A stretch of 64,000 bases of DNA from positions 1-64,000 of the forward strand of contig NZ_LGDW01000292.1 in the NCBI RefSeq assembly GCF_001280005.1. Reading direction: 5' to 3'. The notes below the pieces were generated by a model. It was not told the DNA's origin. It saw nothing but the letters and a program-made list of their open reading frames with translations, and did not search any database. Positions 15,349-38,421 of the stretch are shown here, piece after piece; position 1 is the first letter of the stretch; each line of letters starts with the position of its first letter. The stretch comes from Streptomyces sp. NRRL WC-3618 (GTDB lineage: Bacteria; Actinomycetota; Actinomycetes; Streptomycetales; Streptomycetaceae). A program made the position numbers and the translations under genes.

Positions 15349-16398
15349 TCAGAACGTCAGCACCCCCCGCGCCACCCGCCCCGCCTGCGCGTCCCCCACC
15401 GCCTTCTCGAAGTCCTCCACCGGATACGTCTGCGTCACCAACTCGTCGAGCAGCAGCCGCCCTTCGCGGTACAGCTCGGCGTAGAGCGCGATGTCCCGCT
15501 GGGGGCGGGAGGAGCCGTAACGGCAGCCGAGGATCGACTTGTCCAGGAACATCGACGCGACGACGAAGGCCGCCTCCGCCGTGGCCGCCGGGACGCCGAG
15601 CAGGACCGCCTGGCCGTGCCGGTCGAGCAGGTCGACGGCCTGCCGTACGAGTTCGACGCGCCCGACGCACTCGAAGACATGGTCCGCGCCCGTCGGCAGC
15701 ACGTCCCGTACCCCGTCCGTCGAGGTCAGGAAGTGGGTCGCGCCGAACCGCCGTGCCACCCCCTCCTTCGCCGGGTTCGCGTCCACGGCGACGATCCGCA
15801 GGGCGCCCGCGATCCGCGCGCCCTGGAGGACGTTCAGCCCGACCCCGCCCGTGCCGATCACCACGACGGTGTCGCCGCGGTCGACCCGGGCCCGGTTGAG
15901 CACGGCGCCCACCCCGGTGAGGACGCCGCAGCCGATGAGCGCGGCCGACGGCATCGGGATGTCCTTCGGGATGCGTACCGCCTGTACGGCCTTCACCACC
16001 GTGCGTTCCACGAAGGCCGAGTTGCACGCGAACTGGAACACCGGCTGCCCGCCCCGCGTGAAGGGCCGCCCCGGCCGACCGATCGCCTGCCGGCACATGG
16101 TCGGCCGCCCCCGGTCGCAGTCGGCGCACGCCCCGCAGTTGGCGAGCGTCGACAGCGCCACGTGATCCCCGGGCGCCACATGGGTGACACCGGCTCCGAC
16201 TGCCTCCACCACCCCCGCGCCCTCGTGCCCGAGCACCACGGGAACGGGGAAGGGAATGGTGCCGTCCACAACCGACAGGTCGCTGTGGCAGAGCCCCGCC
16301 GCCGAGATCGCGACGAGCACCTCCCCCGCGCCGGGATCCCGCACCTCCAGATCATCGACGACCTCGATCCGCTTCCCGTCGAACAGCACACCGCGCAT
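15349..16398 (-). CDS. Zinc-dependent alcohol dehydrogenase (MDR family)
   Basis: 349 residues. LCHSDLS and GHEGAGVVEAVG supply catalytic zinc ligands, and CGACADCDRGRPTMC is the four-Cys structural zinc loop. GTGGVGLNVLQGA is the Rossmann dinucleotide site with a downstream acidic residue (VAVDAN), suggesting NAD(H). The family oxidises alcohols to aldehydes. The ATG overlaps the stop of the upstream acyl-CoA dehydrogenase gene by one base (TGATG), so the two are translationally coupled in one catabolic operon. A 92-base fragment of this gene is found at 6457-6548. Confidence 0.88.
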   Translation of the reverse strand: MRGVLFDGKRIEVVDDLEVRDPGAGEVLVAISAAGLCHSDLSVVDGTIPFPVPVVLGHEGAGVVEAVGAGVTHVAPGDHVALSTLANCGACADCDRGRPTMCRQAIGRPGRPFTRGGQPVFQFACNSAFVERTVVKAVQAVRIPKDIPMPSAALIGCGVLTGVGAVLNRARVDRGDTVVVIGTGGVGLNVLQGARIAGALRIVAVDANPAKEGVARRFGATHFLTSTDGVRDVLPTGADHVFECVGRVELVRQAVDLLDRHGQAVLLGVPAATAEAAFVVASMFLDKSILGCRYGSSRPQRDIALYAELYREGRLLLDELVTQTYPVEDFEKAVGDAQAGRVARGVLTF

Positions 16399-17567
16399 CA
16401 GCCGACCCCCTCGGGTCCGTTTGATCGCCTAGGTTCCTTGGGCAGTCCGAGCACGCGCTCGGCGATGATCGTGCGCTGGATCTGGTCGGAGCCGCCGTAG
16501 ATCGTGTCGGCCCGGGAGAACATGAACAGGTGCTGCGCGGCGTCGAGTTCGTAGGGCGCCGTCCGCGACCACGCCACCGGTCCCACGGCGGCCTCCGCGC
16601 CCCGCACCAGCATGGCCAGCTCGCCGAGCCGTTGGTGCCAGCCGCCCCACAGCAGCTTGGCCACGCTCGGCGCTCCGGCATCGCCCGAACCGCCCAGTGT
16701 TCGCAGCGAGTTCCAGCGCATCACCCGTAACTCGGCCCACTGCCGCACGAGTCGCTCCCGTACGACGGGATCCTCGACCGCGCCGCTGTCGACGGCGGCC
16801 CGGACCACGCGCTCCAACTCCCTGGCGAACCCGATCTGTTGGGCGAGCGTGGAGACGCCTCGCTCGAAACCGAGCAGGCTCATCGCGACGCCCCAGCCGC
16901 CGCCCTCGGCTCCGACGAGGTGGTCCGCGCGCGCGTGCGCCCCGTCGAAGAAGACCTCGTTGAACTCGCTGGTCCCGGTCAGCTGCCGGATGGGCCGGAC
17001 CTCGATGCGCCCAGGCTGGTCCATGGGGACGAGCAGAAAACTGAGCCCACGGTGCCGGACCGACCCCGGTTCCGTCCGGGCGAGCACAAAGCACCAGTCC
17101 GCCTCATGGGCGAGGGACGTCCAGATCTTCTGTCCGGTGATCCGGTACGACCCGTCGGCGGCCCGCTCGGCCCTCGTACTCACCCCGGCGAGATCGGACC
17201 CGGCGCCGGGCTCGCTGTACCCCTGACACCAGAGTTCCTCGCCGGCGGCGATCGGCGGCAGGAACCGGGCCCGCTGCTCCTCGCTGCCATGCGCGAGAAG
17301 CGTAGGAGCAAGCAGATTCTCCCCGATGTGCCCAGACCGCGCAGGCGCCCCGGAACGCACGTACTCCTCGGCCCAAACAACCTGTTGGGTAAGCCCGACA
17401 CTCCGGTTCCCGTACCCGCTCTCCCCCCAGGAAAGCCCGATCCACCCCCCCTTCCCAAGAACCCGCTCCCAACTCCGCCGCTCAAGCCCTCCACCAACAT
17501 GAGCACAAAGCCAACCCCGAGCTTCCGCCCGAAACTCCTCATCCCCGACGCCGAATCCAAACTCCAC
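16398..17567 (-). CDS. Acyl-CoA dehydrogenase
   Basis: 389 residues, FAD-dependent, introducing a double bond into an acyl-CoA. Typical stretches are WCQGYSEPGAGSDLAGVST (the acyl-CoA/FAD loop), KIWTSLAHEADWCFVLART, and near the end a GGSDQIQRTIIAERVLGLPK segment. The GTG start at 17567 follows GGGGAG. It lies upstream of the alcohol dehydrogenase with a one-base overlap and downstream of the SDR gene. Two further acyl-CoA dehydrogenases lie 4-6 kb away under the same predicted operator. Confidence 0.88.
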   Translation of the reverse strand: MEFGFGVGDEEFRAEARGWLCAHVGGGLERRSWERVLGKGGWIGLSWGESGYGNRSVGLTQQVVWAEEYVRSGAPARSGHIGENLLAPTLLAHGSEEQRARFLPPIAAGEELWCQGYSEPGAGSDLAGVSTRAERAADGSYRITGQKIWTSLAHEADWCFVLARTEPGSVRHRGLSFLLVPMDQPGRIEVRPIRQLTGTSEFNEVFFDGAHARADHLVGAEGGGWGVAMSLLGFERGVSTLAQQIGFARELERVVRAAVDSGAVEDPVVRERLVRQWAELRVMRWNSLRTLGGSGDAGAPSVAKLLWGGWHQRLGELAMLVRGAEAAVGPVAWSRTAPYELDAAQHLFMFSRADTIYGGSDQIQRTIIAERVLGLPKEPRRSNGPEGVG

Positions 17568-30066: not shown

Positions 30067-31080
30067 ATGTCCCATCCGAGCGCCGCCAGAAAACCAAGCC
30101 TGTATCACACCACACCGATGGTTTCCATCCTTGACGCCCCGGGTGCGGGTTATGTCGAGAACGCCGAGGTCGAGCAGCGGGTCATCGGTTCGCACGGTGA
30201 ATTGCGGACGTGCATTGTTCCGGAACACGAGCGAGATCGACTACAGGAACTCGACGCCGACTACGTCATTCTTTGGCACCGGGTTTCCCTGGACGCGGAC
30301 TTCTTCGAAAAGAACAGGACCTGCCGTGCGGTCGTCTGCGCGAGCGTCGGTTATGACCACGTCGCCGTCGAGGCCGCCCATGCCCGCGGGATTGCCGTTT
30401 ATCACGTCCCCCATTACGGCACCGAAGAGGTGGCCGACCACACGTTGGCCTTGTTCCTCGCCCTGGCGCGCCGGCTCGGGGACCTGAGCGGCCATGTACG
30501 GGACGGCGGCTGGGACTGGCGGACGATCGGTGACGCGCGACGGCTGAGGGGCAGCGTGTGGGGCGTCATCGGGCTCGGGCGTATCGGGCTCGCGGTGGCG
30601 GAGCGGGCCAAGGCGTTCGGTATGCGGGTCGTCTTCCACGATCCGTACAACCATCCCGGCATCGAGAAATCGCTCGGTATCGAGCGCCACGCAGATCTGA
30701 ACACGCTGCTGGAGGTGTCCGACGCGGTCAGCCTGCACGTGCCGCTCGACGCCGGCACCCGCCATCTGCTGGACGGTGAGCGGCTGCGCAGGATGAAACG
30801 TGGCGCGGCGCTCATCAATACGGCGCGTGGCGCGCTCGTCGACATCGAGGCCCTCAAGGGAGCACTGACCGAGGAACGGCCTGCCTGGGCCGCGCTGGAC
30901 GTGGTGGAGGGAGAGCCTTCCCTTCCCGATTGGCTGCGCGACCATCCGCAGGTGCTGCTCAGCCCGCACGCCGCTTTCTACTCGGTGGAATCCTTCGCCG
31001 AACTGCGCACCCGAGCCGCCGAAGCGGTGGTTCAGCTGATCAATGGGGCGCCCGTCACCTCAGCCATTCTCGTGCCCTGA
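30067..31080 (+). CDS. D-2-hydroxyacid dehydrogenase family protein
   Basis: 337 residues; reduces a 2-oxo acid or oxidises a 2-hydroxy acid with NAD(H). The start is ATG 30067 behind AGGGAGG. The Rossmann glycine motif GLGRIG is at 169-174, followed by HDPYNHPG, where Asp suggests NAD. The catalytic set is visible as NTARGALVD (Arg), DVVEGEP (Glu) and LSPHAAFYS (His). It resembles C-terminal-binding-protein-like dehydrogenases. It is the first gene of the cluster, 42 bp before the radical SAM gene, and may supply or remove the keto or hydroxy acid partner of the aminotransferase. Confidence 0.85.
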   Translation: MSHPSAARKPSLYHTTPMVSILDAPGAGYVENAEVEQRVIGSHGELRTCIVPEHERDRLQELDADYVILWHRVSLDADFFEKNRTCRAVVCASVGYDHVAVEAAHARGIAVYHVPHYGTEEVADHTLALFLALARRLGDLSGHVRDGGWDWRTIGDARRLRGSVWGVIGLGRIGLAVAERAKAFGMRVVFHDPYNHPGIEKSLGIERHADLNTLLEVSDAVSLHVPLDAGTRHLLDGERLRRMKRGAALINTARGALVDIEALKGALTEERPAWAALDVVEGEPSLPDWLRDHPQVLLSPHAAFYSVESFAELRTRAAEAVVQLINGAPVTSAILVP

Positions 31081-31122
31081 ACTCAGACGTCCCGCATCGC
31101 CATACGTTCCGAGGAGCACACA

Positions 31123-32298
31123 TTGACCACGGAAGCCGCCAAGAGCGAAGTCAACGGGGATTGGACGGACTGGAAATGGCAGCAGCGCAACGCGGTGCGG
31201 ACTGCGAAGCAGTTCCGCCGTAGCTTTCCCGATTGCGATCAGGATCTGGTGGACCTGATCGAACACCACAACACCACCAAGAAGTTCCAGGTGACGCCCT
31301 ACTACTTAAGCCTCATCCCCACGGATCCCAGTACCGGGGGCCCACTCGGCACCGACCCGCTGTGGAAGCAGGTGGCCCCGTTCGGTACCGATGGATCGAC
31401 CGACCCGTACAGCTATGACGGGAAGACCGAGAACTGGGAACTCCCGCACGAGATGGTGACCCCCATCGCCCAACACAAGTACGACAACCGCATCATCGTG
31501 CGTTACGCGAATGTCTGTCACGCGTACTGCCAGTTCTGTTACGAAGCACTGCGCACACTCGACAAAGAGTCCTCCAAAGAGGTGTTCAACCGGGAATACT
31601 GGCAGGCAACGCTCGAATATGTTCGCATGCACCCGGAGGTCGAGGAAATGATCCTGAGCGGCGGAGAGCCGCTCATGCACAGCAATGACCAGATCGACCA
31701 GGCGATGGGCGAAGCCCTGGCGGTCCGCCCCGACCTGATTCTGCGCATCCATACGCGCGCGCTGACGTTCAATCCTTACCGTGTCGACCCCGGACTCGCC
31801 GACGTACTCGCCCGGCACAGGGTCACCGCGATCGGCCTGCACATCACGCATCCCCGTGAGCTCACCCCCGAGTTCGACACGGCGATCGCGCGCCTGCGCA
31901 GCGCCGTGCCCATCCTTTTCGCGAACGTGCCGTTGCTGGCCGGCGTCAACGACGACCCCGACACCATGCGGGACCTGTGCATGGGGCTCTACCGGCGGGG
32001 CGTACACGCGGGCTACCTGTACCACTTCATGCCGCACAGCCCGGAGGCCGAGTTCTTCCGTGCCTCCGTACAGCGCGGAGTGGAGATCGTACGGTCGCTG
32101 AAGCGGCACATCTCCAACCCGGCTGTTCCCGAGTACGTGCTGCCGCACGCCACCGGCAAGTACACCGTTCCGCTGACGGACGTGGGTGCCGCGGACGCCT
32201 TTCCCCGGCATGCCGTCGACGACGACGGCTTCCGGGTGCTGGAATTCGTCAACTGGCAGGGCGAGCACGTCCGTTACCCGGACGTGGAGACCGCATGA
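31123..32298 (+). CDS. Lysine 2,3-aminomutase-like radical SAM/PLP enzyme
   Basis: 391 residues; predicted to shift an amino group from C2 to C3 of an amino acid. The 4Fe-4S ligands are Cys132, Cys136 and Cys139 (C-x3-C-x2-C, as in aminomutases), LSGGEPL is the SAM-binding GGE, and Lys346 in HATGKYTVPL fits the PLP lysine. The start is TTG at 31123 behind GAGGAG. Codon 62 is TTA (31306-31308), which in Streptomyces needs the bldA tRNA, so production should be developmentally timed. The length is close to lysine and glutamate 2,3-aminomutases; the substrate cannot be read from sequence. The stop overlaps the next ATG by four bases. Confidence 0.85.
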   Translation: MTTEAAKSEVNGDWTDWKWQQRNAVRTAKQFRRSFPDCDQDLVDLIEHHNTTKKFQVTPYYLSLIPTDPSTGGPLGTDPLWKQVAPFGTDGSTDPYSYDGKTENWELPHEMVTPIAQHKYDNRIIVRYANVCHAYCQFCYEALRTLDKESSKEVFNREYWQATLEYVRMHPEVEEMILSGGEPLMHSNDQIDQAMGEALAVRPDLILRIHTRALTFNPYRVDPGLADVLARHRVTAIGLHITHPRELTPEFDTAIARLRSAVPILFANVPLLAGVNDDPDTMRDLCMGLYRRGVHAGYLYHFMPHSPEAEFFRASVQRGVEIVRSLKRHISNPAVPEYVLPHATGKYTVPLTDVGAADAFPRHAVDDDGFRVLEFVNWQGEHVRYPDVETA

Positions 32299-33479
32299 CC
32301 GAGCGGGCCACGCATGCCCCCGTGACGAGTTGTGCGGCCGCCCGGCTGGAGAAGACGGTGTCGGCCGACGCCGTACGGCACAACCTGGCGCTGCTGCGGG
32401 CGGAGGCCGGGGGCCGACGGGTGATGCCGGTCGTCAAAGGCGACGCGTACGGGCTCGGGGCCCGCGCCGTCGCCACGCTCCTGGTTGCCTCCGGAGTGGA
32501 GGCGCTGGCCGTGGACACCGTCGCCGAGGGAGTCGACCTGCGGGAACACGGCATCGACCGGCCGATTCTGGTGATGGACGTGGACGTGTCCGACAACGCG
32601 TCGGCCTGCGCCACGTACGGGCTGATGCCCGCCGTCGCCACCGTGGGACAGGTCGAACGCCACTGCGGTGCGGGCCACCGGCAGGGCGGTCCCGTCACCG
32701 TGTGGCTGCGTACCAACATCGGCTTCAACCGGTTCGGACCACGCGAGGACCAGGACTTCGAGGTCGTCCTCGACGCTCTGCGCGAGGCCCGTGCCAAGAT
32801 CGACGTGGCCGGGGTCTTCGCCCACCTGTCCAGTTCCGCCTGGGACGAGAAGGAAACGGCCGAACAGGCCACCACCTTCCAGTCCCGGGTGCATCAGGCA
32901 CGGGCGGTACTGGGCGCACACCTCTCCGCGAGCCTGGCCGCGACCCACGGACTGCTGCACCCCGCCGCCCTGCACGGCACGGACTGGATCCGGCCGGGCC
33001 TCGGCCTGTACGGACTGCTCCTGCCCGCCGGCCGGAACCTGTCCGGCTGGCAGACCTCCGGCCTGGACCGGCTCCGGCCCGCCCTCACCGTCCGGGCCCG
33101 GGTGCTCGACCTGATCGACGTCACCCGGGACGAGGGCCTCGGCTACGACCGTTCCTGCGCCGTACCGCCCGGCCGGTGCCTCGCCTCGGTCGCCATCGGC
33201 TTCTCCCGCGGCATCACCGGCTCAGCGGCCGGCTTCTCGGGCCTGCTGCACGGGCGTACCTGCCCCATGGTCGGCAAACCCGGCATGGACTGCACACAGT
33301 TCGACGTGACGAAGGTGCCCGGTGTGCGGCCGGGCGACTGGATGACCTTCATCGGGCCCGAACCGGCCGGTGGCCCCGTGGTGCGCACCGCTGAGGACAC
33401 CGCCGCGGAACTCGGGCTGAGCCTCTACGAGTTGCTCGCCGTGCTCCGGATGCCCGTACGCCTCGAAGACCCGCGATGA
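32295..33479 (+). CDS. Alanine racemase-like PLP enzyme (fold type III)
   Basis: 394 residues; probably epimerises an amino acid at C-alpha. PVVKGDAYGLGARA puts the PLP lysine at Lys48; EGLGYDRSC carries the second catalytic base Tyr284; and GKPGMDCTQFDVT matches the substrate-binding Met-Asp motif near the C-terminus. The ATG at 32295 overlaps the aminomutase stop (ATGA), a sign of coupled translation. The usual house-keeping Alr would not be expected in such an operon, so a pathway-specific amino acid (perhaps the aminomutase substrate or product) is the likely target. Confidence 0.85.
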   Translation: MTERATHAPVTSCAAARLEKTVSADAVRHNLALLRAEAGGRRVMPVVKGDAYGLGARAVATLLVASGVEALAVDTVAEGVDLREHGIDRPILVMDVDVSDNASACATYGLMPAVATVGQVERHCGAGHRQGGPVTVWLRTNIGFNRFGPREDQDFEVVLDALREARAKIDVAGVFAHLSSSAWDEKETAEQATTFQSRVHQARAVLGAHLSASLAATHGLLHPAALHGTDWIRPGLGLYGLLLPAGRNLSGWQTSGLDRLRPALTVRARVLDLIDVTRDEGLGYDRSCAVPPGRCLASVAIGFSRGITGSAAGFSGLLHGRTCPMVGKPGMDCTQFDVTKVPGVRPGDWMTFIGPEPAGGPVVRTAEDTAAELGLSLYELLAVLRMPVRLEDPR

Positions 33480-33534
33480 CCGTCCCGATCCTGGGACGGT
33501 TCCCCGTCCAGACCCCGGACAAGGTGGAGGACAC

Positions 33535-34635
33535 GTGACCGAAGACAGCGCCCTGGAGCGGATCCCGCCCCGCGAGGGTGTGATGCGCGCCGCCCAAGCA
33601 GCGCCGCCGGGCTCGGTGGAAGCCCAACTGAACGCCTGCCTGCGTGGCCCGGTCGAGCCGTTGGAGCTCAGCGAGGCCCACCGGTCGCTGCTGACAGCCC
33701 TCGGCTCCGCACTCGAGCAGGGCGAGCGGAGCCAGGATCCGGAGGCCCTGCTCGACGTACACCGCAGCGCGTACACCGTGTACGAGACACTGCTCGGCCA
33801 TCCTCTCGGGCCGGCCGCCCACGAACGCAGCGCCTGGTTCAACGCCTTCCGCTGGACGTACGAGGAAGCGGTGCTGCGCGGCGACACCGAGGACATCGCC
33901 GAGCGGTTGCCGAGCGCCGAGGACGCGACGCGGCCGGCCTTCGTGCGGGACTGGTTCCTCACCGAGGCCAAGGAACGCAGCACCCTCGACCGAGCCGTCG
34001 AGACGCACCTCGCCGAGCACGCCACCGTGGAGCAACTGGCCCGCTTCATCCAGGCCGACGGGTACCTCAACTACCGCTTCTACGACGCTCTCGTGCTGGC
34101 ACAGCCGCACTTCATGGAGACGGTCAAACACGAGATCAGCCGGCATCTGTGGGACGAGTGCGGGGAGGGCGAGAAGCGGAACGCCCACACCCTCCAGTTC
34201 ACCCGCAGCCTGCGCACCCTCGGACTGTCCCTGCCCGCCGTCCCGCCGTGGGAGGACTGGCGCCCCTACGCCGGACACAACCTGTACTTCGTGCTCGCCG
34301 GCAACCGCAGGCACTACTTCAAGGCACTCGGCAGCCTGGCCATGCCCGAACTCTTCGACGTGGACCGGGACGCGGCCGTCGTCAGGGGACTGGAACGGCA
34401 CGGCTACACCGCGGACACCGACTTCGAGTTCTTCTACAACCACATGGAAGGAGACGCGGAACACGGCCCCGAGTGGCTGGACGGTGTGGTGCTCCCCATC
34501 GTCGACGTCGAGCCCCAGGCGGGGATCGAGCTCATCACCGGCGGGGCGATGCGCATGCTCGCCATGCGCCGCTACAACGAGTACCTCGCCGACTGTCTGG
34601 GCCTGGACCCCGCCCTGACCGACGAGAACGGGTGA
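33535..34635 (+). CDS. Haem-oxygenase-like diiron oxidase/oxygenase (HDO)
   Basis: 366 residues of all-helical, iron-containing redox enzyme type. Metal-ligand candidates lie in KHEISRHLWDECGEG (Glu200, His204, Glu208) and in HMEGDAEH (His303, Glu305, Asp307, His310); both segments are signatures of the haem-oxygenase-like diiron superfamily, which includes UndA, BesC and SznF. Members use O2 to cleave C-C bonds, hydroxylate amines or desaturate. GTG at 33535 follows GGAGG. The residues before 100 are not recognised and may be a helical extension. Substrate unknown, but the context says an amino acid. Confidence 0.8.
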   Translation: MTEDSALERIPPREGVMRAAQAAPPGSVEAQLNACLRGPVEPLELSEAHRSLLTALGSALEQGERSQDPEALLDVHRSAYTVYETLLGHPLGPAAHERSAWFNAFRWTYEEAVLRGDTEDIAERLPSAEDATRPAFVRDWFLTEAKERSTLDRAVETHLAEHATVEQLARFIQADGYLNYRFYDALVLAQPHFMETVKHEISRHLWDECGEGEKRNAHTLQFTRSLRTLGLSLPAVPPWEDWRPYAGHNLYFVLAGNRRHYFKALGSLAMPELFDVDRDAAVVRGLERHGYTADTDFEFFYNHMEGDAEHGPEWLDGVVLPIVDVEPQAGIELITGGAMRMLAMRRYNEYLADCLGLDPALTDENG

Positions 34636-34644
34636 ACCCCGGAC

Positions 34645-35721
34645 GTGGCGAACCCCTTTCCCTCCCTGGAGATGACCGAGCGGAGCTCCGGACGGCGCGC
34701 CCGTGAGCGGCTGAGCACCAACGAGAACGAGTTCGGCCCCGCGCCGGAGGTGCTCCGCGCCATCGGGGAAGCGGCGTCCGAAGCCCACCGCTATCCCGAC
34801 TGCGACCACTTCGTCCTACGACAGCGGCTGGCCGACGAACTGCGCACCGAGCCGGACCACGTCCGTATCGGCTCCGGGGTCGACGGGCTCCTCGGCGAGA
34901 GCGTCCGGGCCTTCCTCGGGCCCGGACGCACCGCCGTGACCAGCGCCGTCACCTATCCCACGTTCGCCTACCTCGCCCGCTCACGCGGGACGGCCGTCCA
35001 TCCGGTGCCCCTGCGCTCCGGCGCTCTCGACCCGGACGAGCTGGCCCGAACCGCACACGAGACCCGCGCCGACGTCATCTACGTCGCCGATCCCGACAAC
35101 CCGACAGGCAGGTCGCAGGGCGCCCAGGCGGTGCTGAACCTGGCGGACGCACTGCCCCTCGCCACTCTCCTGATCGTCGACGGCGCCTACGCCGAGTACC
35201 AGGACCCGTGCCACCGGCTGACCGCGAAGGAGGTGGGAGGACGGCGCATGCTGTGGCTGCGCAGCTTCTCCAAGGCGTACGCACTCGCCGGGCTCCGGAT
35301 CGGCTACGCCGTCGGCGACCCCGACCTGCTCGCCGCGTTGGACGACGGCGCGGAGCACTACGTCGTGGGCCGGGTGGCCGAGTCCGCGGCCCTCGCCGCG
35401 CTCGACGCCACCACGCATCTCGACCGGGTCCTCGCGCAGACCGCGGAGGGACGAGCGCACTACACGGCGGAGCTGGGCGCACTCGGACTCACCGTGCTGC
35501 CCGGCCGGACCAACTTCGTCACCGCCCGCACGGCCGCCCCCAAGACGGCGGAACACCTCGCCGACGTACTCGCGCAAGCGGGGATCTTCATCCGCCGGCT
35601 GACCGCCCCCGGCATGACCGACTGCGTACGGATCAGCATCGGACCGGCCTCGCAACGCGCGACGGTACTGGAGGCCGTCGCCCACCACCTCGCCCGTCGC
35701 CCTGTCGTCCCCACCATCTGA
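34645..35721 (+). CDS. HisC-like class I/II aminotransferase
   Basis: 358 residues. LSTNENEFGPAPEVLRAIGE is the N-terminal signature of histidinol-phosphate aminotransferases; DPDNPTG binds the cofactor ring, and SFSKAYALAGLRIGY contains the PLP lysine Lys210. The start is GTG at 34645, 9 bp after the diiron enzyme gene. Within this cluster it more likely transaminates or C-C cleaves a pathway amino acid than makes histidine. Confidence 0.85.
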   Translation: MANPFPSLEMTERSSGRRARERLSTNENEFGPAPEVLRAIGEAASEAHRYPDCDHFVLRQRLADELRTEPDHVRIGSGVDGLLGESVRAFLGPGRTAVTSAVTYPTFAYLARSRGTAVHPVPLRSGALDPDELARTAHETRADVIYVADPDNPTGRSQGAQAVLNLADALPLATLLIVDGAYAEYQDPCHRLTAKEVGGRRMLWLRSFSKAYALAGLRIGYAVGDPDLLAALDDGAEHYVVGRVAESAALAALDATTHLDRVLAQTAEGRAHYTAELGALGLTVLPGRTNFVTARTAAPKTAEHLADVLAQAGIFIRRLTAPGMTDCVRISIGPASQRATVLEAVAHHLARRPVVPTI

Positions 35722-35731
35722 GGGAGCCCTC

Positions 35732-36943
35732 ATGGCCCGTTCCCCCCACGACCTGACCGCCACCCAGATCGCCGAGTCGGTGTGCCCGGGGCACCCGGAC
35801 AAAGTCGCCGACCAGATCTCGGACAGCGTGCTGGACGCGTTCCTCGCCGCCGACCCGCATTCCCGGGTCAACTGCGAAACCCTGGTCACCCGGGGCAGCG
35901 TGGTCGTCACCGGCCAGATCACCTCCACCGCGGACGTGGACGTGGAGAGCACCATCCGCGAGGTGCTCCACGACGTGGGCTACCACGACCCCGCACGGCA
36001 CGGGCTGTCCGCCGACAGCAGCGAGATACGCATCCAGCTGGACCGCCAGTCACCGGAGATCGCCCACGGTGTCGACCTGGGAGGCGCCGGCGACTCGGGC
36101 ATCGTCTACGGCTACGCCACCGACGAGACACCGGAGCGGATACCCCTCAGCTGCGTACTGGCCCACGACATCGCCCGGCGTGTCAGCACCGCGCGGGACG
36201 ACGACGGCGGCAGGCTGCTGGGGCCGGACGGCAAGGTCCAGGTTCAGCTGACCGAGGGACCGGGCGCGGGCTCGGGCGGGGAGACGGGGCGGCGGGCGGT
36301 CGTCGTGGTGTCGGCCCAGCACCCCACCGCACTCGGGCTCGAGGAACTGGCCGGCATGGTGGCCGACAAGCTCGTCGGCCCCGCCTTGCGGGAGCGCGAC
36401 GTCACCCCCGCGCAGATCCATGTGAACCCCGTGGGCACCTTCGTCGTGGGCGGCCCCGCGGCCGACGCGGGCCTGACCGGCCGCAAGCTGATGGTGGACT
36501 CCTACGGCGGGCTGGTGCGCCATGGCGGAGGCTGCTGCTCGGGCAAGGACGCCACCAAGGTCGACCGTTCCGGTGCGTACGCCGCCAGGTACCTGGCGGT
36601 GAACCTGGTCGCCGCCGGACTGGCGCGGCGCTGCCGGGTCGGACTCGGGTACGCCATCGGCCGCCCGCTCCCCGTGTGGGTGGACGTGAACTTCCTGGGC
36701 ACCGGCACGGTGGACGCCGAGCGGGTCGCCAGGGCGCTTCCGCACCTGGTGGATCTGCGGGTGGAGTCCGTGATCGAACACCTGGGGCTGCGCTCGGTGC
36801 CCTTCCGGCCGACCGCGACCTTCGGCCACTACGGCCGCTCCGACCAGGAATTCACCTGGGACACACCCGGGCTGGCCGAGAAGTTCCGGGAGCACTTCAC
36901 TACTTCAGGTGATTCCAACTCCGCCTCGGAGACCGCGCTCTGA
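35732..36943 (+). CDS. metK: S-adenosylmethionine synthetase, divergent cluster-associated paralogue
   Basis: 403 residues; makes SAM from methionine and ATP. HPDKVADQISDSVLDAFL, GYATDET and KVDRSGAYAARY are conserved MetK motifs. Two motifs deviate: the loop normally GAGDQG reads GAGDSG (118-123), and GGGAFSGKD reads GGGCCSGKD (265-273). The usual SEGHPDK is CPGHPDK. It begins 10 bp after the aminotransferase gene. No methyltransferase is encoded nearby, so it may simply feed the radical SAM step or an unusual SAM-consuming reaction. It is not the expected housekeeping copy. Confidence 0.85.
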   Translation: MARSPHDLTATQIAESVCPGHPDKVADQISDSVLDAFLAADPHSRVNCETLVTRGSVVVTGQITSTADVDVESTIREVLHDVGYHDPARHGLSADSSEIRIQLDRQSPEIAHGVDLGGAGDSGIVYGYATDETPERIPLSCVLAHDIARRVSTARDDDGGRLLGPDGKVQVQLTEGPGAGSGGETGRRAVVVVSAQHPTALGLEELAGMVADKLVGPALRERDVTPAQIHVNPVGTFVVGGPAADAGLTGRKLMVDSYGGLVRHGGGCCSGKDATKVDRSGAYAARYLAVNLVAAGLARRCRVGLGYAIGRPLPVWVDVNFLGTGTVDAERVARALPHLVDLRVESVIEHLGLRSVPFRPTATFGHYGRSDQEFTWDTPGLAEKFREHFTTSGDSNSASETAL

Positions 36944-36949
36944 GCCAAC

Positions 36950-37016
36950 GGCGTGGGAGGGTCGGAATCATCCGGGGATGCCGGAAAATCCACCCTGAAA
37001 TCGACCCTCCCACGCC
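36950..37016 (+). terminator. 15 bp inverted repeat between metK and the GCS2 gene
   Basis: GGCGTGGGAGGGTCG (36950-36964) and its exact complement at 37002-37016 frame a 37-base gap that holds a second small hairpin (TCCGG-GGATG-CCGGA). It begins six bases after the metK stop. It could end the first transcript or attenuate readthrough into the GCS2 gene 43 bp later. Confidence 0.65.
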
Positions 37017-37059
37017 ATACGCACGCGAGAGCGTTCCCCTTCGTATCCCAAGGTGAGTC

Positions 37060-38421
37060 ATGTCTGTTGCGGCCGAAGCGTCCTCCCTCTCCCCGACGGA
37101 GCTGCGCAGCGTGTTCGAGAAGAGCACCTCGCGAGAACTCGTCGGCATCGAAGTCGAGTCCGCCGCTCTGGATCCCCGTACCGGGCTCGGAATTCCCTAC
37201 GACGGCGCGGCGGGAATCGGCGCCTATCTCGCCCACATGGTGTCGGTGACCGGAGGTGAGCCCCTGCACGACTGCGGATTCCTCGTCGGGGTCCGGCTTC
37301 CCGACGGCGGGCTCATCTCGCTCGAACACGGCGGAGCGGTGGAGTACTCGTCGCCCCCGGTGGCCTGCGTCGCCGATCTGATGGACCTCACCCGGCGCAC
37401 GCTGGCACAGTTCGCGGAGAACGCGGACCGCTTCGGTTTCGCACTGGTGCCCGGGTCCCAGTACCCGTTCACCACGTTCGAGGAAGTGCGGTGGATGCCC
37501 CACTCCCGCACCTCGATCATGCGCGAGCACTTCGAAAGCCTCGGCAACGAGGGCATGTTCGGCCCCCGCATCATGTCGATGATTCTCTCGACCCAGGTGT
37601 CGTTCGACTTCACCTCGCCCGTCGACCTCGCCGAAAAGCTCCGGGTCCAGGCCGCGGCGTCCACCCCGGCCGCCGCGCTCTTCGTCAACGCGCCCATGGA
37701 CGGGGGCGAGCCCTGCGGCGCGCTCTCCCGCCGCATGCAGTTCTGGAGCCGCGCGGACCCCGCCCGCACCCGCGTCATCCCGGTCACCCTCCGGGAGGAC
37801 TTCACCATCGACCGCTTCATCGAGTGGGCACTGACGCTGCCGATGGTGCACAGGGGACTGCCGGACGGAAGCAGGCAACGGGTGACTCCCGTCCCCTTCG
37901 CCACTCTGCTGGAGAAGGGCTTCGACGACGGCACGAAACCGGACCTCCAGGACTGGCGAGACCATCTGTCGCAGATCTTCCCGGACGTCCGGCTACGGGA
38001 CACCCTCGAACTCCGGGCGGTGGACGGGCCGCCCTACCCCGCCCTGGGCGCGGTGCCCGCCTTCTGGAGCGGTCTGACCTACGACGCCGCCGCCCGCGCC
38101 TCCGTATGGGAGCTCCTGCGCGGCATCAGCCCCGAGCAGCACCTCCAGGGCCTCGACGACATCGCGGTGCGGGGCATGGACGCGCAGCTGGCGGGCCGCC
38201 CCATGCGCGACCTGGCCGCGGAGCTGCTCCGTCTCAGCGAGTCCGGCCTGCGCGCCCAGATCGCCGCGGGGCGGGAACGGGAAGAGGCCGCCGCATACCT
38301 GGAGCCGCTCAAAGAGGTCGTACGCACCGGCGAAACCTTCGCCGACCGGGTACTCGCGCTGTGGCACAGCAAGCCCGAGCACTTTCCCGAGGCGTACGTC
38401 GACACGTACCGGATCCGCTGA
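37060..38421 (+). CDS. GCS2-type glutamate-cysteine ligase-like enzyme
   Basis: 453 residues; ATP-dependent ligase of the glutamate-cysteine ligase 2/EgtA-like group that joins the gamma-carboxyl of glutamate to an amine. ELVGIEVESAALDP and LISLEHGGAVEYSSPP are the ATP/Mg and glutamate-binding segments. ATG at 37060 follows AAGGTGAG. It is the last gene of the cluster and is separated by a strong hairpin, so it may also be transcribed separately. Probable role: gamma-glutamylation of the pathway amino acid, either as a step or for self-protection. A role in ergothioneine is less likely, as no egt genes are near. Confidence 0.82.
   Translation: MSVAAEASSLSPTELRSVFEKSTSRELVGIEVESAALDPRTGLGIPYDGAAGIGAYLAHMVSVTGGEPLHDCGFLVGVRLPDGGLISLEHGGAVEYSSPPVACVADLMDLTRRTLAQFAENADRFGFALVPGSQYPFTTFEEVRWMPHSRTSIMREHFESLGNEGMFGPRIMSMILSTQVSFDFTSPVDLAEKLRVQAAASTPAAALFVNAPMDGGEPCGALSRRMQFWSRADPARTRVIPVTLREDFTIDRFIEWALTLPMVHRGLPDGSRQRVTPVPFATLLEKGFDDGTKPDLQDWRDHLSQIFPDVRLRDTLELRAVDGPPYPALGAVPAFWSGLTYDAAARASVWELLRGISPEQHLQGLDDIAVRGMDAQLAGRPMRDLAAELLRLSESGLRAQIAAGREREEAAAYLEPLKEVVRTGETFADRVLALWHSKPEHFPEAYVDTYRIR

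What the first reader, a model, noticed from the sequence alone, without database searches (positions are those of the whole stretch)
30067..38421. Compact, unassigned amino-acid-derived biosynthetic cluster
Seven plus-strand genes with short gaps or overlaps combine a D-2-hydroxyacid dehydrogenase, a lysine-2,3-aminomutase-like radical SAM/PLP enzyme, an alanine racemase-like enzyme, a haem-oxygenase-like diiron enzyme, a HisC-like aminotransferase, a SAM synthetase paralogue and a GCS2 glutamate-amine ligase. Motifs for each are visible. No NRPS, PKS, terpene or RiPP core is present, so standard cluster finders may miss it. The families act on free amino acids, which points to a small amino-acid antimetabolite or unusual beta/D-amino acid. 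I know no characterised pathway with this set. Product and order of steps are inference.
Basis: partly seen in the sequence, partly recalled or inferred. Interest (0 to 1): 0.88.

Follow-up and report, generated by a model that had tools for sequence, protein, structure and literature searches.

The report
Uncharacterised methionine-derived amino-acid cluster
A rare set of neighbouring enzyme genes in Streptomyces-type bacteria appears to turn methionine into an unknown small amino-acid product by way of an altered SAM-making enzyme, and it matches no pathway that was found.

Summary
Seven plus-strand genes at 30067-38421 encode DH, KAM, ALR, HO, AT, MAT and GCS2, with gaps of -4 to 116 bp. 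The core DH-KAM-HO-AT-MAT recurs in the same order in eight other actinobacterial loci; ALR is in 5 and GCS2 in 3 of the nine. It is rare: KAM and the MAT paralogue were found in the same 3 of 394 family genomes.

New evidence points to methionine. (1) The cluster MAT is a separate clade with Gln where other MATs carry the Glu that binds methionine's amino group: 34 of 34 clade rows, against Glu in 82 of 84 other listed MATs and 9 of 9 housekeeping MATs. (2) DH is closest among solved structures to CtBP, which works best on 4-methylthio-2-oxobutyrate, and keeps an aromatic residue where CtBP holds the sulfur. (3) Methionine-salvage genes flank two of nine clusters. (4) KAM lacks lysine aminomutase's two Asp (positions recalled).

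Best reading: an adenosylated hydroxy- and/or beta-amino methionine analogue loses MTA to give a small amino acid, exported or capped. Product, step order and the roles of AT and ALR are inference.

The parts
30067..31080 (+). DH: D-2-hydroxyacid dehydrogenase, CtBP-like; core gene
   Evidence: 2-Hacid_dh_C 175 bits; best solved relatives CtBP1/2, 188 bits, next kind 160; PHAAFYS against CtBP PHAAWYS; Phe304 is F in 9 of 9 cluster DHs
31123..32298 (+). KAM: KamA-family radical SAM/PLP 2,3-aminomutase-like enzyme, substrate probably not lysine; core gene
   Evidence: C132, C136, C139 and K346 invariant in 16 aligned rows; 139 bits (profile 200) to lysine 2,3-aminomutase 2a5h; below the cut-off of every NCBIfam model matched
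32295..33479 (+). ALR: alanine-racemase-like PLP enzyme, accessory, overlaps KAM by 4 bp
   Evidence: Ala_racemase_N 156 bits, C 58.5 bits; the genome's other copy scores 146 bits for the C domain, this one 62; in 5 of 9 clusters
33535..34635 (+). HO: haem-oxygenase-like diiron oxidase, HrmI-like; core gene
   Evidence: AlphaFold model pLDDT 87; best fold match HrmI 9n1x, TM 0.78/0.82; E110, E208, H218, H303, H310 in 18 of 18 rows, residue 307 D in 16 and E in 2
34645..35721 (+). AT: HisC-like class I/II aminotransferase; core gene
   Evidence: PRK08153 290 bits and hisC 236.5 bits, both under cut-off; K210 and R329 invariant in 9 cluster copies (their roles as PLP Lys and carboxylate Arg are recalled)
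35732..36943 (+). MAT*: methionine-adenosyltransferase paralogue with altered methionine pocket; core gene
   Evidence: metK 376 bits; the two other MATs of the genome score 544 and 556 bits; Gln62 at the human Glu70 position in 34 of 34 clade rows, A47N and T54R clade-specific
37060..38421 (+). GCS2: glutamate-amine ligase of the plant GshA type, accessory
   Evidence: GCS2 121.5 bits, TIGR01436 232 bits under cut-off 463; in 3 of 9 clusters

Best explanation
This is a small, uncharacterised, patchily distributed actinobacterial pathway that makes a methionine-derived amino acid. Methionine (or its 2-keto acid, made by AT) is changed at C2 and/or C3: KAM moves the amino group from C2 to C3, HO oxidises the product with a diiron centre and O2, and DH reduces a 2-keto-4-methylthio acid to the D-2-hydroxy acid. 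MAT* then adenosylates the sulfur of this altered methionine, so that MTA becomes a leaving group and is expelled by an internal or external nucleophile. The product is exported (EamA in some clusters) or capped, with glutamate by GCS2 here or by ATP-grasp ligases elsewhere. Shown: gene set, conservation, family assignments, predicted fold of HO, pocket substitutions of MAT*. Inferred: substrates, order of steps, MTA as by-product, the product. AT and ALR have no certain place.
For: MAT* carries Gln at the position of human Glu70, which binds the amino nitrogen of methionine (passages of PMC6850014 and PMC7271947), in 34 of 34 clade rows with a residue there (2 of 36 are fragments) and in 9 of 9 cluster loci; Glu is in 82 of 84 other listed MATs and 9 of 9 housekeeping MATs, while the Asp258, Gln113 and Lys289 positions are kept. 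DH is closest among solved structures to CtBP, which works best on 4-methylthio-2-oxobutyrate and whose Trp318 contacts the sulfur (passages of PMC6303947); cluster DHs have Phe there in 9 of 9, while three paralogues of the genome have Ala, Ala and Gly three residues after the His. Methionine-salvage genes (MtnA fusions, acireductone dioxygenase) flank two clusters in different fusion forms; one of these genomes has a second dioxygenase copy elsewhere. KAM and MAT* are present in the same 3 of 394 genomes. EamA exporters in L004 and L058, ATP-grasp ligases in L008.
Against: No substrate is shown for any enzyme. Salvage genes lie beside only 2 of 9 clusters: five further cluster genomes (G000, G634, G635, G1169, G1170) have their acireductone dioxygenase on another contig, G904 has none found, and L008's genome was not searched. 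In G633 the other dioxygenase copy lies about 3 kb from a MAT of the ordinary type, so salvage genes near a MAT gene are not unique to this cluster. The physiological substrate of CtBP itself is unknown. Two of 84 other MATs (P0297, P0316) also have Gln at the Glu70 position. The KAM-HO pair occurs on contigs where no MAT* was listed, so these two need not act on a methionine analogue. AT, and ALR where present, are not needed by the single-skeleton version.
Confidence: 0.5

Rival explanations
1. MAT makes ordinary SAM, and AT is the SAM-consuming enzyme: it eliminates MTA from SAM as a PLP enzyme (as ACC synthase, Mur24 or SbzP do), giving ACC or a gamma-substituted amino acid that KAM, HO and DH then modify.
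For: AT is a PLP aminotransferase-type enzyme in the core; MTA-producing PLP enzymes on SAM are known (passages of PMC7277169 and PMC10491745); salvage genes flank two clusters.
Against: AT's best matches are PRK08153 and hisC, and no ACC-synthase model was among the 25 of 60 families shown. It does not explain why MAT* lost the Glu that binds methionine's amino group, nor DH.
Confidence: 0.2
2. Two modules: AT, DH and MAT* make an adenosylated 2-hydroxy-4-methylthiobutyrate (a hydroxy-SAM) that alkylates an amine or hydroxylamine made separately by KAM and HO, giving a chelator-like amino-hydroxy acid.
For: AT, DH and MAT* form a natural methionine to hydroxy-analogue sequence; KAM+HO also occur together without a listed MAT* (17 of 76 distant HO rows share a contig length with KAM, 0 with MAT*).
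Against: No alkyltransferase gene is among the seven; the MAT* rows used are only the 36 of its own clade; the two halves are together in all nine actinobacterial loci compared.
Confidence: 0.2
3. MAT only raises SAM supply and the other enzymes act on an unrelated amino acid; the pocket changes in MAT are drift or tuning.
For: Biosynthetic clusters can carry extra MAT genes (recalled); human MAT Gln113Ala keeps about three quarters of its activity, so pocket changes can be mild.
Against: 34 of 34 rows with the same Glu to Gln change plus A47N and T54R, with catalytic positions kept in nearly all rows, in sequences down to 58% identity.
Confidence: 0.1

Closest known systems
HrmI/BelK lysine N-oxygenases (hormaomycin, belactosin)
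   Same: HO has the same fold and ligand pattern; HrmI is the best solved match by sequence and by fold.
   Different: About 25% identity; HrmI acts on lysine's side-chain amine (PMC13108848, section 8). I recall no aminomutase or MAT partner for it.
Lysine 2,3-aminomutase family (AblA, BlsG, Glu 2,3-aminomutase, EpmB)
   Same: KAM has the CxxxCxxC motif and an invariant Lys at the likely PLP site; matches annotated ablA or blsG on plasmid records are 27-31% identical.
   Different: Below all cut-offs of the models matched; no Asp at the two positions that bind lysine's side chain in 2a5h (alignment; positions and roles recalled).
PLP enzymes that expel MTA from SAM (ACC synthase, GnmY, Mur24, SbzP)
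   Same: MTA as leaving group is the shared idea (passages).
   Different: Here the sulfonium precursor is likely not SAM itself, because the MAT pocket is changed.
beta-Ethynylserine (Bes) pathway
   Same: Recalled: a haem-oxygenase-like diiron enzyme and a gamma-glutamyl ligase act on free amino acids.
   Different: No 2OG halogenase among the seven genes; KAM, DH and MAT have no counterpart there (recalled).
Oxetin, (2R,3S)-3-amino-oxetane-2-carboxylic acid of Streptomyces sp. OM-2317
   Same: A C4 beta-amino acid with one oxygen bridging C2 and C4, of the kind this enzyme set could make (passages of PMC8147305 and PMC12207814).
   Different: No link to this locus is shown. In the one paper search made for it (20 of 39 papers listed) no listed title or abstract start named a gene cluster for it.

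Membership tests
HDO (haem-oxygenase-like diiron oxidase) | seven-helix haem-oxygenase fold | tested here: met
   model pLDDT 87.1; HrmI TM 0.78/0.82
HDO (haem-oxygenase-like diiron oxidase) | 3 His / 3 carboxylate ligand set | tested here: met
   E110, E208, H218, H303, H310 in 18 of 18 rows, residue 307 D in 16 and E in 2; assignment inferred from the alignment to HrmI and SznF
HDO (haem-oxygenase-like diiron oxidase) | N-oxygenase as HrmI | not testable with these tools
   reaction type cannot be read from sequence; HDOs with the same primary ligands differ in function (PMC13108848, section 11)
Lysine 2,3-aminomutase | score above TIGR03820 cut-off | tested here: not met
   183 bits against 525
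Lysine 2,3-aminomutase | Asp at the positions of D293 and D330 | tested here: not met
   no Asp in the aligned stretches of the profile; positions and roles are recalled and the alignment near the PLP Lys is not certain
KamA-type radical SAM/PLP enzyme | CxxxCxxC and PLP Lys | tested here: met
   C132, C136, C139 and K346 invariant in 16 rows; that K346 is the PLP Lys is inferred
Methionine adenosyltransferase | above metK cut-off, ATP/PPi catalytic residues kept | tested here: met
   376 against 309 bits; His29, Lys181, Arg264, Lys285 and Lys289 positions kept in all rows with a residue there, Lys265 in 36 of 37
Methionine adenosyltransferase specific for methionine | Glu70 contacting the methionine amino group | tested here: not met
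   Gln in 34 of 34 clade rows
CtBP-type 2-hydroxyacid dehydrogenase | aromatic residue at the Trp318 position that contacts sulfur | tested here: met
   Phe in 9 of 9; CtBP has Trp, so this is met in kind only
CtBP-type 2-hydroxyacid dehydrogenase | reduces 4-methylthio-2-oxobutyrate | not testable with these tools
   needs an assay
ACC-synthase-type SAM cyclase | AT matches ACC synthase or GnmY models | tested here: inconclusive
   best NCBIfam matches are PRK08153 and hisC; 25 of 60 matches were shown and GnmY was not compared
Bes pathway | Fe/2OG halogenase gene present | tested here: not met
   none among the seven genes; that the Bes pathway has one is recalled

The most novel reading that the evidence does not exclude
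The cluster holds a natural methionine adenosyltransferase dedicated to a methionine analogue: it turns a 2-hydroxy-3-amino-4-methylthiobutyrate, made by KAM, HO and DH, into a sulfonium whose C2 oxygen displaces MTA to close an oxetane ring, giving oxetin or a close relative. This would be a biosynthetic route to the first reported oxetane natural product.
Probability: 0.12. Interest if true: 0.88.

Novelty: new variant of a known kind. Interest (0 to 1): 0.64.

Why it matters
If true, nature uses a retuned SAM synthetase to activate a methionine analogue as an electrophile, which would be a new use of MAT chemistry and a route to strained or unusual C4 amino acids. The conserved MAT*-KAM-HO signature gives a simple genome-mining handle for a class of small amino-acid products that lacks NRPS, PKS or RiPP genes, and would add a substrate class both to KamA enzymes and to the haem-oxygenase-like diiron oxidases, of which only about a dozen are functionally validated (PMC13108848, section 4).

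Tried and rejected
Tried without result: Pfam and NCBIfam on ORF 32186-33394 gave nothing because it is the wrong frame of ALR; the right frame is 31977-33479, with the gene starting at 32295. Viral-contig scans with KAM and HO alignments confirmed no relative. In the phage collection the five listed of 19 KAM matches are 28-30% identical. In 194 cyanobacterial-class genomes 14 match the KAM profile, at most 192 bits against 651-691 for the three family genomes, so I do not take them for orthologues. The KAM structure model (pLDDT 77, poor around residues 133-152) was not used further. The gvg (FVG) cluster was considered and dropped: the terms aminomutase, iron-containing, radical SAM and heme oxygenase do not occur in the text of PMC8064604. 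Ten paper searches were answered (two of them returned no paper); none listed this gene set by title or abstract start. Papers were seen as passages (PMC8064604, PMC7277169, PMC10491745, PMC6850014, PMC7271947, PMC6303947, PMC8147305, PMC12207814, PMC13185094) or as passages and named sections (PMC13108848: sections 4, 8, 11); none was read whole. Rejected: a lysine or arginine 2,3-aminomutase role for KAM (cut-offs); a Bes-type pathway (no halogenase).

Full report
Observation. The seven genes are as described, contiguous on the plus strand from 30067 to 38421, with gaps of 42, -4, 55, 9, 10 and 116 bp. The window belongs to a 9.3 Mb assembly; the loci with the same core are from Streptomyces, an actinomycete MAG, and G904, a family member of another genus.

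Conservation. The scan of genome contigs with an HO alignment gave 9 loci. Seven (L002-L008) carry DH-KAM-HO-AT-MAT in the same order; two (L009 Nocardia crassostreae, L010 Plectonema) carry HO alone within the stretch held. So nine loci including the window have the core. L005-L007 resemble each other and may not be independent. ALR is in 5 of 9 (window, L002, L003, L004, L008), GCS2 in 3 of 9 (window, L002, L003); the contig of L006 ends 0.9 kb after MAT, so its GCS2 cannot be judged. Other parts vary: a second class I/II aminotransferase after MAT in L005-L007 (Pfam for L005 only), an EamA transporter in L004 and L058, two ATP-grasp ligases in L008, and in L058 a class IV aminotransferase, a second radical SAM gene and a DAO-type oxidase.

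Rarity. HO at E <= 1e-60 was found only in the window's own genome among 396 genomes of the phylum. In 246 genus genomes 23 match at E <= 1e-3, but after the own hit (583 bits) the best is 158 bits, which I take for other diiron oxidases. KAM (E <= 1e-90) and MAT* (E <= 1e-145) were found in the same three handles of 394 family genomes.

KAM and HO as a wider pair. Among the best 120 rows for each, 42 of 120 HO rows share the length of their longest contig with a KAM row, against a mean of 0.4 for shifted lengths. Of the 76 more distant HO rows (P0173 on), 17 share with KAM and none with one of the 36 MAT* rows. In Burkholderia cenocepacia (L015) a KAM relative (48%) lies beside an ATP-grasp ligase, a PF10014 2OG oxygenase and an MFS transporter, with no HO in the 25 kb held; this hints that an oxygenase works with the KAM product. 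Against a universal pairing, N. crassostreae has HO and no KAM at E <= 1e-40, and the cyanobacterial HO homologues have no KAM near.

MAT*. The listing of 120 homologues breaks sharply between 36 rows (P0249-P0284, 58% identity or more) and the rest (52% or less) (the 7999 candidates sharing most words were scored). Cluster MATs score 372-397 bits on metK, the nine other MATs of the same six genomes 538-565. Human Glu70 binds the amino nitrogen of methionine together with Asp258, and Gln113 its carboxylate (passages of PMC6850014 and PMC7271947). At the Glu70 position the clade has Gln in 34 of 34 rows with a residue there (2 of 36 are fragments; one search printed 35 because the window's protein was added to the list that already held it), other listed MATs have Glu in 82 and Gln in 2 of 84 (P0297, P0316), and housekeeping MATs of these genomes have Glu in 9 of 9; the Gln113, Asp258 and Lys289 positions are kept. 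A47N and T54R nearby are in 34 of 34 and in 0 of 93 outside. Residue 47 falls at human Ala55 by counting from Glu57; that this lines the methionine pocket is recalled. The simplest reading is a substrate without the normal amino group at C2.

DH. The best solved relatives are CtBP1 and CtBP2 (188 bits, next kind 160). CtBP1 works best with 4-methylthio-2-oxobutyrate, and its Trp318 makes a sulfur-pi contact thought to confer this specificity, though its physiological substrate is unknown (passages of PMC6303947). The query has PHAAFYS against PHAAWYS; Phe at that place is in 9 of 9 cluster DHs (L058 has PHSAFYS). The three paralogues of the genome read PHLGAS, PHIGAM and PHIAGS, so Ala, Ala and Gly at the same distance from the His, by counting and not by a full alignment.

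Methionine salvage. L002 has an MtnA-phosphoribosyltransferase fusion, an acireductone dioxygenase and a HAD hydrolase on the opposite strand upstream of the cluster; L003 has an MtnA-MtnB fusion ORF starting 72 bp after GCS2, then an acireductone dioxygenase (the Mtn names are my reading of IF-2B, Aldolase_II, Pribosyltran and ARD). Ten handles were searched for the dioxygenase family and 9 match; G634 and G1120 give identical places, so this is 8 of 9 distinct genomes. G633 (L002) has two copies, one by the cluster; G636 (L003) has its only copy by the cluster; G000, G634, G635, G1169 and G1170 have it on another contig; G631, the HO-only Nocardia, has it about 48 kb from HO; G904 has none. 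This supports MTA as by-product but is not general.

KAM and HO. KAM is below the cut-offs of the models it matches. Against 2a5h the two stretches that hold D293 and D330 (positions recalled) have no Asp in the KAM profile. HO is a HrmI-like HDO by sequence (67 bits; profile 137) and fold.

Mosaic. DH, KAM, HO and AT of L003 are closest to L002 (84, 84, 91, 76%, against 74, 76, 79, 70% to the window), while MAT of L003 is closest to the window (91%, against 80% to L002, trimmed) and GCS2 is 90%. A recombination boundary between AT and MAT suggests that MAT*-GCS2 and DH-AT can be exchanged as blocks.

Interpretation. Three separate lines (MAT* pocket, DH relatives, salvage genes) point to a methionine-derived, thioether-bearing intermediate that is adenosylated and loses MTA. 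In the single-skeleton version, KAM moves the amino group to C3, HO oxidises C2, DH sets a D-2-hydroxyl and MAT* activates sulfur; ring closure by the C2 oxygen would give an oxetane. Oxetin, (2R,3S), from Streptomyces sp. OM-2317 (passages), has such a skeleton, but there is no direct evidence for it here. In the two-module version AT, DH and MAT* make a hydroxy-SAM that alkylates a KAM/HO product. AT and ALR fit neither perfectly. What is shown is the anatomy; the chemistry is inference.

Noticed in passing
L011:7332-10930, L012:7248-10975, L013:7331-10951: On three cyanobacterial plasmids an HO homologue (44-50% identity) lies directly behind a large gene annotated NACHT in two of them (hypothetical in L013), with no KAM in the stretch held. 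A possible unrelated system.
   Followed up: partly
L014:6875-8910: On a Salmonella plasmid a distant HO-like diiron oxidase gene (about 30% identity) is followed by a DMT transporter gene, as EamA genes lie after MAT in L004 and L058.
   Followed up: no
L009:9743-11104: Nocardia crassostreae has an HO homologue (65%) but no KAM at E <= 1e-40 in its genome, so HO can occur alone.
   Followed up: partly
L015:11935-16533: Burkholderia cenocepacia record: KAM-clade gene, ATP-grasp ligase, PF10014 2OG oxygenase and MFS transporter in a row; looks like a related amino-acid cluster.
   Followed up: partly
L003 against L002 and window, AT/MAT boundary: Mosaic cluster: the MAT-GCS2 block of L003 is closest to the window while DH-KAM-HO-AT is closest to L002.
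   Followed up: partly
L058:4123-6742 and 15694-16692: The G904 cluster ends in a second radical SAM gene and a DAO-type oxidase, and an AurF-type N-oxygenase homologue lies about 2 kb upstream of DH.
   Followed up: no
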